Source: a virus. From it: a stretch of 27,333 nucleotides of DNA. The translations under genes and the position numbers were made by a program. Location: positions 1 to 27,333 of the IMG/VR virus record IMGVR_UViG_3300028198_000017, one strand, 5' to 3'. How positions within the stretch are numbered: the first letter of the stretch is position 1; each line of letters opens with the position of its first letter. The notes under the pieces are model-generated. The model saw only the letters and a program-made list of their open reading frames with translations, was not told where the DNA came from and ran no database searches. Shown here piece after piece: positions 1 through 27,212 of this stretch.

Positions 1-1130
1 TGGCAAAGGTGGCAGCCTCTATTAAGGAGTATGGGTTCAGGCAGCCTATCGTAGTGGACTCCGAAATGGTCGTGGTAGCGGGGCATACAAGGCTTGCAGC
101 AGCTTGGCAATTAAAACTTGGGAAAGTACCCGTGCATATTGCGGATAACTTGACCGATGCACAAATCCAAGCATACCGGATTATGGATAACCGCTCCCAT
201 GAAGAAGCGGAGTGGGATGACGAATTACTTGGCATTGAGCTTGCGGATTTAAGCGACCAAGACTTTGACCTAGAGCTTACGGGCTTTTCCGCAGCCGAGA
301 TTGAACAGTTAATGAACGACAAGTCTTTAGCCGGGGAGCTTGAGGGTGAGGACGATGCCCCGGAACTCCCGGCAGAGCCAACATCGAAGCGTGGCGAGAT
401 TTACCAGTTGGGAGAGCATCGATTGATGTGCGGGGACTCGACAAGCGAGGGGGATGTTGCCTTGCTGATGAACGGTCAAAAAGCGGACATGGTATTCACC
501 GACCCGCCTTACAACGTTAACTACTCTGGCAGGGGGAATAATAATCTTGGGAAGATAGAGAATGATGATTTATCAGGTGAGGCTTTTGATGTTTTTTTAA
601 CGCAAACTTTTTTTAATTACTTAAATTTTATGAAGGCACTTGGTTGCATCTATGTCTGCCATCCCGACTCTGCGTCTGCCCCAAAACTAGCGTTTGAAAA
701 GGCGTTTGCTGAACACTTTAAAAAGTCCTCAACGATAATTTGGGTAAAGCAATCGGGTGGTATGGGTTGGCAAGATTACCGGGTGCAGCATGAGCCAATT
801 TTATACGGTTGGAAAGAAGGTCAGGGCAAGCATTGGTTTTGCGGAGATAGAACCAAAACAACGGTTTGGAATATTAGTAGGGATGCAGCAACGTCCTACA
901 AGCACCCAACCCAAAAGCCTGTCGCTCTGGCGCAAGAGGCAATACTAAATAGCAGCAAGGGTGACGATATTGTCATGGATTTATTCGGTGGCTCCGGGTC
1001 TACCTTAGTCGCAGCCGAGAAGCTAAATCGCAAGTGCTACACGATGGAATTAGAACCAGGTTATTGCGATGTGATTATTGAGCGTTACGAAAAGTTGTTC
1101 GAGCGTAAAGCGGAGAAGCTGAATGCCTAA
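1..1130 (+). CDS. ParB-like nuclease domain / DNA methyltransferase fusion (5' partial)
   Basis: The frame is open from the first bases of the window. A GTG at position 9 is available, but it falls inside the ParB fold (just before AASIKEYGFRQPIVV), so the gene probably begins outside the window. The N-terminal ~100 residues are ParB/Srx-like, with the VVAGHTRLAAA motif at about 23-33. The rest is a DNA methylase of the N4/N6 family (PF01555 type): catalytic DPPY at about 165-168 and the SAM-binding FGGSGST at about 326-332. The order DPPY before FxGxGxT is typical of beta-class enzymes, which methylate adenine-N6 or cytosine-N4. This fusion is common in phages just upstream of terminase and may protect phage DNA or mark it for replication or packaging. 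Its last 8 nt overlap the next gene. The sequence recognised cannot be read from the gene. Confidence 0.9.
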   Translation, partial: AKVAASIKEYGFRQPIVVDSEMVVVAGHTRLAAAWQLKLGKVPVHIADNLTDAQIQAYRIMDNRSHEEAEWDDELLGIELADLSDQDFDLELTGFSAAEIEQLMNDKSLAGELEGEDDAPELPAEPTSKRGEIYQLGEHRLMCGDSTSEGDVALLMNGQKADMVFTDPPYNVNYSGRGNNNLGKIENDDLSGEAFDVFLTQTFFNYLNFMKALGCIYVCHPDSASAPKLAFEKAFAEHFKKSSTIIWVKQSGGMGWQDYRVQHEPILYGWKEGQGKHWFCGDRTKTTVWNISRDAATSYKHPTQKPVALAQEAILNSSKGDDIVMDLFGGSGSTLVAAEKLNRKCYTMELEPGYCDVIIERYEKLFERKAEKLNA

Positions 1131-12224: not shown

Positions 12225-12771
12225 CGACTTCAATACCGCAGTCCAAGCAGCCGAGGTTCACCCGATTATGCTTTGCAAGGTCAATACATCGGGTGGTGAT
12301 GTTCTGGCTTGGACAGGGATCGGGGACTTGGTTTATGACGGGGATACTTATATCGGCACGGGAACCTTTGTCGGGGTGAGCCAAGTGAGTGAGCGGACTG
12401 ATTTATCTGCAAGCGGGGTGACTTTCAGTCTGTCAGGAGTCCCATCGGCACTTATTTCGACCGCATTAGGTCAAGTGGAACAGGGTCGACCTTGCCAGTT
12501 ATGGATGGCACTTTTAAACACCTCGACCGGGGCTTTAATCTCCGACCCTTATGAATTGTTTGCCGGGTTTTCGGATGTGACAACAATTACTGAGCAAGCG
12601 GAAACGTCAACCATAAGCATTCAGGCAGAAAATCGATTAGTCGATTTAGAGCGACCAAGGATTAGACGGTATACGGACGAAGATCAAAAGTCAGATACGG
12701 CAAACGCAGCGGATGTTGGCTTTGAGTTTGTTCCGGGATTGCAAGACAAGACTATTAAGTTTGGGGGTTGA
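12205..12771 (+). CDS. Tail hub protein, DUF2163/GTA-like
   Basis: 188 aa, preceded by GAACAAGGAGAAAG, an excellent ribosome site. Beta-rich segments LVYDGDTYIGTGTFVGVSQV, then SERTDLSASGVTFSLSGVPS and CQLWMALLNTSTGALI, and the C-terminal LVDLERPRIRRYTDEDQ, are those of the GTA-like hub component (DUF2163 type), which forms part of the ring between distal tail and the fibre-bearing hub. YTDEDQK...D, shortly before the end, is a recurrent motif in these proteins. Confidence 0.75.
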   Translation: MARNLHSDFNTAVQAAEVHPIMLCKVNTSGGDVLAWTGIGDLVYDGDTYIGTGTFVGVSQVSERTDLSASGVTFSLSGVPSALISTALGQVEQGRPCQLWMALLNTSTGALISDPYELFAGFSDVTTITEQAETSTISIQAENRLVDLERPRIRRYTDEDQKSDTANAADVGFEFVPGLQDKTIKFGG

Positions 12772-12881
12772 TGGCTAATTTAAGCGAAATATTGTTACAG
12801 GGAATTTCAAAAAAACTGGATCAGCTTTTAGATTTAGTTCGGCAGTTAATAAAAACATTGGGGCAGATAAGCAAAAAATAA
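12771..12881 (+). CDS. Small helical protein (36 aa)
   Basis: ATG at 12771 overlaps the previous stop (TGATG); TAA at 12879-12881 overlaps the next ATG. The sequence (ILLQGISKKLDQLLDLVRQL) is a single amphipathic helix with Leu/Ile spacing of a coiled coil. Tight overlaps on both sides suggest it is translated. No family recognised; it could pair with the membrane peptide encoded next. Confidence 0.45.
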   Translation: MANLSEILLQGISKKLDQLLDLVRQLIKTLGQISKK

Positions 12882-23127: not shown

Positions 23128-23955
23128 ATGTCAAAATATTCCCCGATCTACCAGAAAATATGGAAGGACAAAGATTTTTTAAAGTCCTCTAAGGATGCAA
23201 AATTAATTTTTCTATACCTGACCACTAACGATGCGATTCACATTAGTGGTGTTTATGAAATCCCTTTAAGCACAATTTCTTATGAAACTGGCATCCCATC
23301 AGCAACGGTTCGTCAAGTGTTGACCAACGGTTCAATCAAAAACGTGGTTTACGACTTGGAAAATGAAATGGTGTTTTTAGTAAATCGGCTGAAAAAATAT
23401 AGCCAAGGGGGGAACCCAACCCAAGTTGAGAGGGGTGTTATTTCCCAATTTTTAGAAAATGCCAAAACTCCGCTCTGGAATTTGTTTATAGAGGTTAACC
23501 CTTATTATAAAACACTTTTTTCAACCCTTGACCAACCCTTGCCCAAGGGTTCATTACCCTTACCCTTACCCTTACCCTTAAAAGATTTAAATAATAATGG
23601 AACAAACTCAAATTTAGTTGATGAAAATTTTCAGGAGGATTGGGGAAGGTATCCAAGGAAAGCGGGGAATAAGAAAAATGCTAATGCCCATTACAGAAAA
23701 TCGGTGGGGTTAGATAAAAGAAAAGCATTCTTAAAAAAAATGGATGCTTATGTTGCAAGTGTTAACGACCCCGAATATCTAAAACACGGGGAAACATTTT
23801 TCAAGAATTGGGAGGACTTGGAAGTTTCTGAATTTATCCCGCCTAAACAACCAAAAACAAGGGGAACCAAAAAGTTAGAGAAAATGAAAACCATTATGGA
23901 GTCAGCCGGGGAGCATGGTGGACTCCGACTAATAGGGGGTGGCAATGACTTATGA
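23128..23955 (+). CDS. Phage replisome organiser-like protein (winged helix)
   Basis: 275 aa from the ATG at 23128; an upstream frame is open to 22999 but overlaps SSB and lacks the family start. The N-terminal ~100 residues (KIWKDKDFLKSSKDAKLIFL, ISGVYEIPLSTISYETGIPS) match the winged helix of phage replisome organisers and DnaD/replication initiators. A proline-leucine linker (LPLPLPLPL) encoded by 4.5 TTACCC repeats separates it from a C-terminal part (WGRYPRKAGNKKNANAHYRK) rich in Lys/Asn. It likely binds the origin and recruits helicase loader; the next gene may take part. No origin was identified. Confidence 0.75.
   Translation: MSKYSPIYQKIWKDKDFLKSSKDAKLIFLYLTTNDAIHISGVYEIPLSTISYETGIPSATVRQVLTNGSIKNVVYDLENEMVFLVNRLKKYSQGGNPTQVERGVISQFLENAKTPLWNLFIEVNPYYKTLFSTLDQPLPKGSLPLPLPLPLKDLNNNGTNSNLVDENFQEDWGRYPRKAGNKKNANAHYRKSVGLDKRKAFLKKMDAYVASVNDPEYLKHGETFFKNWEDLEVSEFIPPKQPKTRGTKKLEKMKTIMESAGEHGGLRLIGGGNDL
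23554..23580. repeat. TTACCC microsatellite (4.5 copies)
   Basis: Tandem hexamers TTACCC from 23554, inside the replisome organiser gene, encoding the Pro-Leu linker. The complementary strand carries GGGTAA repeats, which could fold as a G-quadruplex. Length variation in multiples of 6 keeps the frame. Confidence 0.9.
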
Positions 23956-24986: not shown

Positions 24987-25841
24987 ATGTCAAACATAAA
25001 AACATTAGTGCGGGGTGCGTATGACATCCAGAAATTAAGAATCCAGATGGGGAACAGGATTGTTGGTAACTTCAAGGCGAAGCTAGGGCAAGAGCCAAGC
25101 AAGCCAGAGGCAGAAATTGATGCAAAGGGCAAAATGTTACTGAACCAGATCAGAGCCTCTTATAAAAAAATAACTGATGGGGTTAAGACCTTTCCAAGAC
25201 GGGCTGTTTTTAAGGGAGATGGGGTTATTGATGATTATACGGAGCTTTGTCTTGTATCGTCCTATGTGGGTCTTGAAAGGGAAGAAAAGCAGCATTTTAT
25301 TTTTTTAAAAAATGTTTTGGCAGATTATCCAATATATCAAAGTTTTTTGCTGCACGTTAAGGGAGTTGGTGCAGCTATGGGTGGGGTGATTGTGAGCGAG
25401 ATAGATATTAGTAAAGCAAAATATCCATCGAGCTTATGGATGTATGCGGGTCTTGATGTCGCACCTGATGGAGTTGGGCGATCACGCAAAAAAGAACATC
25501 TTGTCGAGACTGAATACATTTCTAAAGATGGCGAGGTTAAAAAGAAAAAAGGCATAACATTTAACCCGTTTTTAAAAACCAAATTAGTTGGTGTTCTAGG
25601 TTCATCTTTTTTAAAAGTTAAAGAAAGTCCATATAAAGATTCTTACTACCAGTATAAAGCGAGGCTAGAGAATCACCCTAACCACAAAGAGAAAACAAAA
25701 GGGCATCGTCATAATATGGCAATGCGTTATATCGTTAAATTATTTTTGATTGACTTGCATCGAGAGTGGAGATCGTTAGAAGGATTATCGGTAAGCACCC
25801 CATATAGCGAGGGCAAGTTAGGAATGAAGCACGGGAGTTAG
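24987..25841 (+). CDS. TasA-like Nop-domain protein of a TIGR-Tas system (IS110-like fold)
   Basis: 284 aa. Seen: the C-terminal half has the helix-hairpin-helix-like VKGVGAAMGGVIVSEID (124-140) and KYPSSLWMYAGLDV (145-158), as in the Transposase_20 part of IS110 recombinases and the Nop domain of box C/D proteins. A lysine-rich stretch lies at 165-190 and a long basic helix GHRHNMAMRYIVKLFLIDL (239-257) follows. The N-terminal half is helical (INDYTELC-like YVGLEREEKQHFIFLKNVL). No DEDD/RuvC or HNH motif is visible. Known: Tas proteins of TIGR-Tas systems are Nop-domain proteins related to IS110, and the nuclease-free kind is TasA. Inferred from the 36-nt array directly downstream, it binds processed dual-spacer guide RNAs. 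Without a nuclease domain it may bind and block targets or recruit a partner. Alternative: an IS110 remnant; the missing catalytic N-terminus and the array argue against that. Confidence 0.75.
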   Translation: MSNIKTLVRGAYDIQKLRIQMGNRIVGNFKAKLGQEPSKPEAEIDAKGKMLLNQIRASYKKITDGVKTFPRRAVFKGDGVIDDYTELCLVSSYVGLEREEKQHFIFLKNVLADYPIYQSFLLHVKGVGAAMGGVIVSEIDISKAKYPSSLWMYAGLDVAPDGVGRSRKKEHLVETEYISKDGEVKKKKGITFNPFLKTKLVGVLGSSFLKVKESPYKDSYYQYKARLENHPNHKEKTKGHRHNMAMRYIVKLFLIDLHREWRSLEGLSVSTPYSEGKLGMKHGS

Positions 25842-26376
25842 TCTGCGCCAGATAGAAAACCACTGCAACCAAGCGAGTCAATTCTATAGAGAAAACCGAT
25901 GGAAACGAGCGAGTCAGTTTGAAGAAGAAACCCACTCAACTTTAGCGAGTCAGGGGAAGGAAGAAACCCAAAATTAATCAGCGAGTCATATCGTTCGAGA
26001 AAACCACAGTATCACAGCGAGTCACTGACATTTAGAAAACCATGGAAGAAAAGCGGGTCAAGGGCGTTAAGAAAACCAAAGCTTGAAAGCGAGTCAACTT
26101 TGCGAAGAAACCCAAAGCGTGATAGCGAGTCAAGCAAGTTTAGTAAACCAAGACTAAAAAGCGAGTCATATCGTTCGAGAAAACCATGGAAGAAAAGCGA
26201 GTCAAGCAAGTTTAGTAAACCAAGACTAAAAAGCGAGTCAGTAGGGAAGATGAAAACCAAAGAGAATGAGCGAGTCAAGGATAACAAGAAAACCATGCAG
26301 TTTGAGCGAGTCAATTCTATAGAGAAAACCGGTGGGAACAAGCGAGTTAATCAGTATTAGAAAACCAATTTAAGGC
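25836..26376 (+). repeat. TIGR-type array: 15 units of 36 nt, two 9-nt boxes and two 9-nt spacers each
   Basis: Units begin at 25836, 25872, 25908, 25944, 25980, 26016, 26052, 26088, 26124, 26160, 26196, 26232, 26269, 26305 and 26341. Each is AGCGAGTCA, spacer A, AGAAAACCA, spacer B. The first box is degenerate (AGTTAGTCT, overlapping the Tas stop codon) but in phase. Spacer A in order: gcgccagat, attctatag, gtttgaaga, ggggaagga, tatcgttcg, ctgacattt, agggcgtta, actttgcga, agcaagttt, tatcgttcg, agcaagttt, gtagggaag, aggataaca, attctatag, atcagtatt. Spacer B: ctgcaacca, atggaaacg, ctcaacttt, aaattaatc, cagtatcac, tggaagaaa, aagcttgaa, aagcgtgat, agactaaaa, tggaagaaa, agactaaaa, aagagaatg, tgcagtttg, gtgggaaca, atttaaggc. 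Second-box variants: AGAAACCCA (third, fourth, eighth units), AGTAAACCA (ninth, eleventh), AGAAAACCG (second, fourteenth). The boxes do not pair with each other. No own promoter or terminator found; probably transcribed with the Tas gene. Confidence 0.9.
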
Positions 26377-26406: not shown

Positions 26407-26907
26407 ATGTACCCGGTAAAAATTTTTGACAGTAAAGGCAAACTGAAAATCGTGGTGAGTGGTGAGGAATGTTGTGACCGCTTTTGGCAGAAACTTGGGA
26501 GCGGTATGAATAACGAATTCACCGGGGCGAATATTACGAATGCAGAGCGGGGGAATGTCCCAAGGTCAATTAAGTGTATCAGGTGCGGGAAAGAGGCAAG
26601 TAAGAAGGCAGCCAACGCTTTGTATTGTTCTGCTTACTGCCGTAATACATCGACCAATAAACGATTAGCTGCGGAACGGTTGGCTAAAACTAAACCTAAA
26701 AAATGTGCATCTTGCGGGAAGGAATTCAGATCACCCCGCTCCGGGAGTAGATACTGCAACGCTCCATGTATAGCCCCATGCTTTCAACGAAAACCATTAA
26801 TCCTCCGGGATTGTGTTGAGTGCGGGAAACAGTTTAAAGCAAAGAATAACCAAAAACGGTGCAGCGAGGCTTGCGGATTAAATCAGGGGTGGATAAGTCG
26901 ATCATGA
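26407..26907 (+). CDS. Three-knuckle zinc-binding protein
   Basis: 166 aa behind ATGGAGGCATGCG, a strong ribosome site. Three similar Cys clusters: CIRCGKEASKK..YCSAYC (about 58-78), CASCGKEFRSP..YCNAPC (about 99-119) and CVECGKQFKAK..RCSEAC (about 137-156), each C-x2-C then C-x3-C, like treble-clef or MYND/FCS-type zinc knuckles. The N-terminal ~55 residues have no recognised motif. Such knuckles bind nucleic acid or proteins and often stand next to HNH or other nucleases in phages. It follows the array and overlaps a PD-(D/E)XK nuclease gene, so the two may act together. Confidence 0.75.
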   Translation: MYPVKIFDSKGKLKIVVSGEECCDRFWQKLGSGMNNEFTGANITNAERGNVPRSIKCIRCGKEASKKAANALYCSAYCRNTSTNKRLAAERLAKTKPKKCASCGKEFRSPRSGSRYCNAPCIAPCFQRKPLILRDCVECGKQFKAKNNQKRCSEACGLNQGWISRS

Positions 26908-27212
26908 GTCAACTTGAGGAAGATTTCGCATTCCAATTAAAAGCGGTCGGAGTTACTGACCCGGTGCGTGAGTACAAATTTCACCCAACCCGGAAATGGA
27001 GACTCGACTTTTACTGGGATACGGGGTGGGCAGTCGAAATCCAAGGTGGCGGGTGGGTACGGGGTGGGCATAACCGGAACGCTAAAACCATGTGGAAGGA
27101 TTACGAAAAGCTGAACGCTTGTCAGGAGCGAGGGATTAAAGTCCTCCAATTCACGGGGGATCAGGTTAAGGATGGAGAGGCAATTTCTCAAGTCATAAGA
27201 ATATTAAAATGA
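26904..27212 (+). CDS. Small PD-(D/E)XK endonuclease
   Basis: 102 aa from ATG 26904, which overlaps the previous stop (ATGA). The core is YKFHPTRKWRLDFYWDTGWA followed by VEIQGGGW: RxDFxW supplies the Asp and EIQGG the Glu-x-Gln/Lys of the PD-(D/E)XK signature. Then comes RNAKTMWKDYEKLNACQERG, the typical helix with a YxKLN motif, and VLQFTGDQV. Related small phage proteins are DUF559/VSR-like and may resolve branched DNA or nick DNA in recombination. A function as a nuclease partner for the nuclease-free Tas protein is speculative. Confidence 0.8.
   Translation: MSQLEEDFAFQLKAVGVTDPVREYKFHPTRKWRLDFYWDTGWAVEIQGGGWVRGGHNRNAKTMWKDYEKLNACQERGIKVLQFTGDQVKDGEAISQVIRILK

What the first reader, a model, noticed from the sequence alone, without database searches (positions are those of the whole stretch)
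24987..25841. Nuclease-free Tas protein: what does it do without a nuclease?
The protein keeps the C-terminal IS110/Nop-like part and basic helix but shows no RuvC, DEDD or HNH motif. TIGR systems with nucleases cut DNA guided by both spacers; a phage TasA-like form may instead silence or mark targets (host, rival phage or its own genes), or work with a separate nuclease.
Basis: partly seen in the sequence, partly recalled or inferred. Interest (0 to 1): 0.85.

Follow-up and report, generated by a model that had tools for sequence, protein, structure and literature searches.

The report
Nuclease-free phage TIGR-TasA with guide array
A marine phage carries a small protein of the recently described TIGR-Tas family that lacks any DNA-cutting domain, next to an array of about fifteen paired guides; it most likely uses them to clamp chosen DNA without cutting it, perhaps to silence genes of rival phages.

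Summary
ORF 24987-25841 (+, 284 aa) is a TasA: NCBIfam TIGR-Tas model above cut-off, sequence match to solved TasR and TasH, and a model (pLDDT 83.7) that superposes along its whole length on the part of TasR, TasH and IS621 that follows their nuclease or DEDD domain. No RuvC/HNH/DEDD domain, and no serine in 44 of 44 relatives at the IS110 serine column. A 36-nt dual-repeat TIGR array (25836-26376) starts inside the tasA stop codon. TasA itself is published (PMC12045711), function unknown. New here: 84 of 90 TasA loci carry matching arrays (1370 units); edge repeats show A-U/G-C/G-U covariation; arrays hold families of near-identical guides; guides do not match their own or sibling phages beyond chance; no conserved partner nuclease. 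Two guide families exactly match conserved motifs in other viral contigs (RepA-like helicase RGHSSL, C5 methyltransferase RERVLFL), but hit numbers are at chance level, so targets remain suggestive. Best reading: non-cutting RNA-guided DNA binding against rival elements.

The parts
24987..25841 (+). tasA: solo Nop-domain Tas protein, 284 aa, no nuclease domain
25836..26376 (+). TIGR array: 14 complete units plus one partial; edge AGCGAGTCA, spacer A 9 nt, loop AGAAAACCA, spacer B 9 nt; the first, degenerate edge repeat (AGTTAGTCT, 25836-25844) contains the tasA stop codon
25872..25907 (+). tigRNA unit ATTCTATAG | ATGGAAACG, variant partner of the unit at 26305
26305..26340 (+). tigRNA unit ATTCTATAG | GTGGGAACA (same spacer A, spacer B 6/9 identical to the unit at 25872)
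26124..26231 (+). exact guide duplicate (AGCAAGTTT | AGACTAAAA at 26124 and 26196) flanking a unit (26160) that shares spacer A with 25980 and spacer B with 26016: internal recombination or duplication in the array
26407..26907 (+). zinc-finger/HNH-like protein 3' of the array; not conserved at other TasA loci (context, not part of the system)
26859..27212 (+). phrog_503 protein with weak homing-endonuclease match; not conserved at other TasA loci (context)

Best explanation
It is a phage-borne TIGR-TasA system. The array is transcribed with tasA (inferred: same strand, and the first edge repeat overlaps the tasA stop codon), cut into 36-nt tigRNAs (inferred from FpTasA), and a TasA dimer holding one tigRNA opens an 18-bp site, spacer A pairing with one strand and spacer B with the other (inferred from TasR and TasH). 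With no nuclease, serine or DEDD site it should not cut (shown by sequence and model, not by assay), so the bound complex acts as a programmable roadblock or DNA bend. The guides are not aimed at the phage's own held DNA, so the most likely use is to block transcription or replication of rival phages or other mobile elements in the same host cell.
For: Family and fold: (TasH Z 20.4 over 216 residues at 3.5 A; TasR Z 20.0 over 194 residues at 1.8 A; IS621/ISCro4 Z about 14). Missing catalysis. Array conserved in form: 84 of 90 TasA loci have at least 2 units, 1370 units in all. Edge-repeat pair box D2-box C1 is A-U in 44, G-C in 28, G-U in 11 and A-C in 0 of 83 arrays with at least 3 units, the kind of covariation described for TasR edge repeats, so the RNA looks selected. 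Guides evolve as families: 67 pairs of distinct guides differ at 1-3 of 18 positions against 0, 0 and 3 in three re-paired controls, and 26 of 66 pairs at 2-4 differences share a locus, as expected if guides follow a varying target. No self-match: 0 of 236 guides match their own locus with 2 or fewer mismatches; 977 guides give 9 matches at 1 or fewer mismatches (those in the pattern-retrieved sites set aside) in 1.43 Mb against 6-14 in six controls. Candidate targets: guide TAGAGGTCA|AGCGAACTA (L066-L070) matches exactly the RGHSSL codons of a RepA-like AAA_25 helicase in two contigs of one lineage, a motif intact in 79 of 79 homologues read; L045's guide TAAAAACAG|GAAAGAGTT matches exactly the ERVLFL codons of the conserved RERV motif of a C5 methyltransferase, in the frame written down beforehand.
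Against: No target of any window guide was identified: the window's variant guide family gave 8 IMG/VR stretches, none exact to either guide. Over five guide families 51 matching stretches were found for 52 18-mers, about what chance gives, and 9 of 29 coding lineages lay in the predicted frame. Tests that guide variants are synonymous codon changes were weak. The methyltransferase hit L225 lies on a 327-kb contig with no shown link to the phage that carries the guide. Whether binding blocks transcription or replication was not testable here.
Confidence: 0.55

Rival explanations
1. TasA regulates host genes for the phage's benefit, as an RNA-guided repressor like the phage-encoded TldR proteins that regulate host flagellin.
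For: Phage-borne RNA-guided transcription factors without cutting exist (PMC13418256, search listing and start of abstract only); a few TasA contigs carry an integrase (5 of 27 records).
Against: A regulator of fixed host genes should keep few, stable guides; here loci hold up to 43 units and 971 of 1268 guides are distinct. 22 of 27 records show no integrase, though many are fragments.
Confidence: 0.2
2. TasA is an RNA-guided DNA-bending aid to phage integration or recombination (suggested by Faure et al.).
For: TasR bends its target by about 180 degrees (PMC12045711, section read); in the window TasA sits in a replication/recombination module (Erf annealing protein, SSB, helicase-loader-like genes).
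Against: No integrase in the window record or in 22 of 27 TasA records in all (fragments); many diverse guides per array do not fit one att site.
Confidence: 0.08
3. TasA marks targets for a separate nuclease encoded nearby.
For: Two nuclease-like genes lie 3' of the array in the window; a family that I read by eye as VRR-NUC-like occurs at 16 of 90 loci.
Against: The window's two genes have no homologue at the other 89 loci and no other family recurs at most loci (the ORF caller grouped tasA itself at only 54 of 90 loci, so neighbour counts are lower bounds).
Confidence: 0.08
4. TasA guides set the phage's own gene regulation or copy number.
For: In the window the array and tasA lie next to the replication genes.
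Against: 0 of 236 guides match their own locus with up to 2 mismatches and none of 977 match the source locus with up to 1; but the window record is a fragment.
Confidence: 0.09

Closest known systems
TIGR-TasA (Faure et al. 2025, PMC12045711; e.g. FpTasA of Flavonifractor plautii)
   Same: Solo Nop domain, adjacent dual-repeat array, 36-nt units, 9-nt spacers, box C/box D ends in both repeats
   Different: A clade found mostly on phage contigs; box D reads AG/AA rather than the UG of TasR; array starts inside the tasA stop codon. Whether this clade is in that paper's tables was not checked (supplements not available)
TIGR-TasR (PDB 9mty) and TasH (PDB 9vzx, 9w02-9w04, 21kl)
   Same: Nop and coiled-coil parts superpose over the whole TasA model
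   Different: TasA lacks the N-terminal RuvC or HNH domain, and has a longer stretch with a basic beta-hairpin (about residues 160-192) than TasR
IS110-family recombinases (IS621, ISCro4)
   Same: C-terminal Nop-like part, Z about 14
   Different: No DEDD domain and no catalytic serine in TasA
Phage TldR and non-cutting CRISPR effectors (types IV, V-M)
   Same: Would work like them: RNA-guided DNA binding without cutting (analogy)
   Different: Different protein and a split two-spacer guide; the analogy comes from the PMC12045711 discussion and a search listing

Membership tests
TIGR-Tas (TasA type) | C-terminal Nop domain of the Tas family | tested here: met
   NCBIfam NF052498 117.9 bits vs cut-off 100; profile vs TasR 4.7e-24, TasH 1.2e-15; fold
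TIGR-Tas (TasA type) | Adjacent array of alternating edge and loop repeats with two short spacers per unit | tested here: met
   25836-26376, 14 complete units (13 of 36 nt, one of 37 nt) plus one partial
TIGR-Tas (TasA type) | Box C/box D motifs at both repeats with edge-pair covariation | tested here: met
   Loop AG..CCA; edge AG/AA..YCA; D2-C1 pair A-U/G-C/G-U in 83 of 83 arrays with at least 3 units
TIGR-Tas (TasA type) | No N-terminal nuclease domain (distinguishes TasA from TasR and TasH) | tested here: met
   Protein starts 4-12 residues before conserved V8 in 44 of 44; model aligns from TasR residue 112 and TasH 66 onwards
TIGR-Tas (TasA type) | Array processed into 36-nt tigRNAs bound by the protein | not testable with these tools
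   Shown for FpTasA in the literature, not for this protein
TIGR-Tas (TasA type) | Dual-spacer DNA targeting (A pairs one strand, B the other) | not testable with these tools
   Two exact genomic matches in that geometry are suggestive only
IS110 transposase | N-terminal DEDD/RuvC-like catalytic domain | tested here: not met
   Absent; TasA starts after it in the alignment and model
IS110 transposase | Catalytic serine in the C-terminal domain | tested here: not met
   Column holds no Ser in 44 of 44 TasA proteins
Box C/D snoRNP Nop5 | Nop fold | tested here: inconclusive
   Z about 7 at 3.5-5 A, within the range the tool calls uninformative for helical folds
Box C/D snoRNP Nop5 | Fibrillarin and L7Ae partners | not tested
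   no call

The most novel reading that the evidence does not exclude
TIGR-TasA is an inter-phage silencing system whose guides are aimed at codons of invariant protein motifs in rivals' DNA-replication and DNA-modification genes (RepA-like helicase RGHSSL, C5 methyltransferase RERV), and arrays keep several guide alleles that track synonymous variants of one target site; these would be the first natural TIGR targets.
Probability: 0.3. Interest if true: 0.9.

Novelty: new member of a known kind. Interest (0 to 1): 0.5.

Why it matters
TasA is described as the commonest Tas effector, and its function and targets are open (PMC12045711, section read). A set of 90 TasA loci with 1370 parsed guides, the lack of self-matches, guide families that vary within one array, and two named candidate target genes turn 'what does it do?' into specific binding and silencing tests. 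If confirmed it would be a phage-versus-phage, cut-free counterpart of CRISPR interference.

Tried and rejected
Self- or sibling-targeting: rejected on held DNA. Codon-phase test over guide pairs: within spacers p 0.023, across spacers not significant. Synonymy test on 67 pairs: z -1.6 (A+rcB, gap 0), -2.2 (gap 2), and -2.3 for the opposite order at gap 1, so it neither proves coding targets nor fixes the order. SPINY family: 30 IMG/VR stretches in 22 lineages, 3 of 14 coding ones in the predicted frame. AHGxL family: 6 stretches, 0 of 4 lineages in frame. Window family: 4 of 6 lineages in frame GN[AT]IE, but only 4 frames are free of stops and no hit is exact. ERVLFL family: 1 of 4 lineages in the written-down frame. 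RGHSSL: I chose that frame by eye before the scan but did not log it; a formal score made later ranks another frame (RTMTS) ahead, and only one of its four guide variants has an exact IMG/VR match. Other guides showed no excess in the 80 helicase-phage loci: 16 matches at 1 or fewer mismatches outside the RGHSSL family against 9-17 in five controls. Rows dropped: 6 of 90 TasA loci gave no units with the parser (L082, L085, L092, L099, L118, L119); guides with other than 9+9 spacers were left out, and the sets also required a parser score of at least 19. The parser's consensus was tuned on this family. The structure alignment A2 used 44 of the 90 TasA proteins. Host of the window: not settled; its terminase is nearest (about 50% identity) to roseophages. 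Hosts of other groups: no close isolate. TasA in INPHARED: only 4 distant records; in plasmids none. No Rfam match, and no + strand promoter excess and no + strand terminator found near the array. Of the papers, I saw PMC12045711 (abstract, passages, sections 4, 5, 6, 8, 10); all others only as search listings.

Full report
What is there. The ORF at 24987-25841 (+) is real, 284 aa. The window is a 27,333-base virus record with lambda-type terminase and portal genes and an Erf/SSB/helicase-loader-like replication module 5' of the gene. NCBIfam's TIGR-Tas model matches above its cut-off (117.9 vs 100 bits; the model's name says 'endonuclease', which does not fit this member); PHROGs files the same family as 'transposase' (phrog_4285, E 5.1e-36). 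By sequence the only solved relatives are TasR (9mty, 1.8e-13) and TasH (21kl, 9.8e-7); with a profile of 44 relatives 4.7e-24 and 1.2e-15.

No nuclease. AlphaFold2 with the 44-sequence alignment gave mean pLDDT 83.7. Against solved structures the model aligns from end to end with TasH residues 66-301 (Z 20.4, 216 residues, 3.5 A), TasR 112-318 (Z 20.0, 194 residues, 1.8 A) and IS621/ISCro4 126-322 (Z about 14): it is the part that follows the HNH, RuvC or DEDD domain in those proteins. Nop5/Nop56 chains score about 7, which the tool says can be a common helical arrangement. Only 4-12 residues precede conserved V8 in 44 of 44 relatives, and the column of the IS110 serine holds no Ser in 44 of 44 (alignments).

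The array. From 25836 to 26376 the DNA reads edge AGCGAGTCA - 9 nt - loop AGAAAACCA - 9 nt, period 36 (one unit is 37 nt), 14 complete units and a partial one. The first, degenerate edge repeat AGTTAGTCT contains the tasA stop codon, so array and gene very likely share a transcript (inference). One guide is exactly duplicated (26124, 26196); 26160 combines the spacer A of 25980 with the spacer B of 26016; 25872 and 26305 share spacer A and 6 of 9 bases of spacer B.

The family. The profile scan of IMG/VR found 116 relatives, of which the best 80 were kept, and 8 loci were found in bacterial MAGs. With the window and loci L002-L014, overlaps counted once, this gave 90 loci; 84 have at least two parsed units, 1370 in all. 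Of 83 arrays with three or more units, the second base of edge box D and the first of edge box C are A-U in 44, G-C in 28, G-U in 11 and A-C in none. Related loci are not independent, but the pattern matches the covariation reported for TasR edge repeats. No neighbour gene travels with tasA: the window's SSB is shared with 5 loci and its DUF6378 gene with 1, its other listed neighbours with none; the ORF caller grouped tasA at only 54 of 90 loci, so these are lower bounds. An integrase was found in 5 of 27 TasA records and a ParB_N domain in 5 of 27, the window among the latter through a ParB-like/methyltransferase gene at its left end.

Guides. Among 1268 units with 9+9 spacers 971 guides are distinct; 67 pairs differ at only 1-3 of 18 positions, against 0, 0 and 3 after re-pairing spacers. 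Of 66 pairs at 2-4 differences, 26 share a locus. Guides therefore exist as families of variants. They do not match their own phage: 0 of 236 within 2 mismatches in the first 14 loci, and 977 guides against 1.43 Mb give 9 matches at up to 1 mismatch (outside sites retrieved by pattern) against 6-14 in six controls.

Search for targets. Five guide families were searched in IMG/VR as A+revcomp(B), gap 0: 51 stretches for 52 18-mers, about one each, as chance would give. In 9 of 29 coding lineages the frame was the one suggested by the variants, not significant. Two hits stand out by meaning. (a) TAGAGGTCATAGTTCGCT, the guide of L066-L070, occurs only in L127 and L128 (one lineage), in the codons of RGHSSL of a 678-aa AAA_25 (RepA-like) helicase. 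The motif is intact in 79 of the 80 homologue loci, all those in which the site could be read; the three substitutions that distinguish the guide variants are all bases seen at those positions in natural alleles (about 6-7% by chance), and two arrays (L067, L070) hold two of the variants each. No RGHS-type helicase or C5-methyltransferase motif was seen in the TasA loci themselves (regular expression only). (b) TAAAAACAGAACTCTTTC, the guide of L045 (71% identical TasA, the closest found), lies in L225 in ERVLFL of YGVPQSRERVLFLG, a conserved motif (recalled as such) of a C5 cytosine methyltransferase (PF00145, 8.1e-64); this frame was written down before the scan. The caveats are in Tried and rejected: the first frame was not logged, a formal score prefers another, and a chance hit for a single 18-mer is expected in a collection of this size.

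Reading. Shown: a solo-Nop Tas protein without catalytic sites, with an intact, structurally conserved, fast-varying guide array. Inferred from TasR, TasH and FpTasA: dimer, 36-nt tigRNA, strand-opening binding of an 18-bp site. Inferred here: binding serves to block genes of other elements. This agrees with one option in Faure et al., who state that TasA function and TIGR targets are unknown; searches for TIGR-Tas, tigRNA and TasA with tigRNA in the held library found no later study of TasA targets (listings only). It is a new member of a known kind; the target leads are what could make it more.

Noticed in passing
L013:10001-11023, L014:10001-11149, L093, L097, L098: These TasA proteins are longer (314-383 aa); in L013 and L014 most of the extra residues sit at about window residue 160, near the basic beta-hairpin of the others, possibly an enlarged DNA wedge or an inserted domain.
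   Followed up: partly
window 3-1130: ParB-like N-terminal domain in one open frame with a DNA methyltransferase-like part; PF02195 over cut-off. Faure et al. report ParB-like genes next to some tasA genes.
   Followed up: partly
window 26100-26360 and 26012-26341: Open frames run through the TIGR array on both strands, helped by the period being a multiple of 3; they are unlikely to be genes.
   Followed up: partly
L005:8999-9555 and 12267-12856: A 142-kb phage with TasA flanked by genes coding 12-aa (36-nt) repeats (NAKVYG...), a beta-helix-like protein that mimics the array period but is not a TIGR array.
   Followed up: no
L143 and L203 (contig IMGVR_UViG_3300028025_001978): The same 41-kb contig holds two copies of the RepA-like helicase gene (84% and 85% identical to the L127 protein), perhaps a joined assembly of two related phages.
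   Followed up: no
window:24987-25841: Public models mislabel nuclease-free TasA: NCBIfam NF052498 'RNA-guided endonuclease', PHROG 4285 'transposase'.
   Followed up: yes
L021:4340-6856: An 838-aa podovirus-like protein has SAINY, the peptide predicted for guides of L009-L011, one mismatch from L010's guide; within chance.
   Followed up: partly
window 23554-23580: Short perfect TTACCC hexamer tandem (4.5 copies) inside a replication-initiator-like gene.
   Followed up: no
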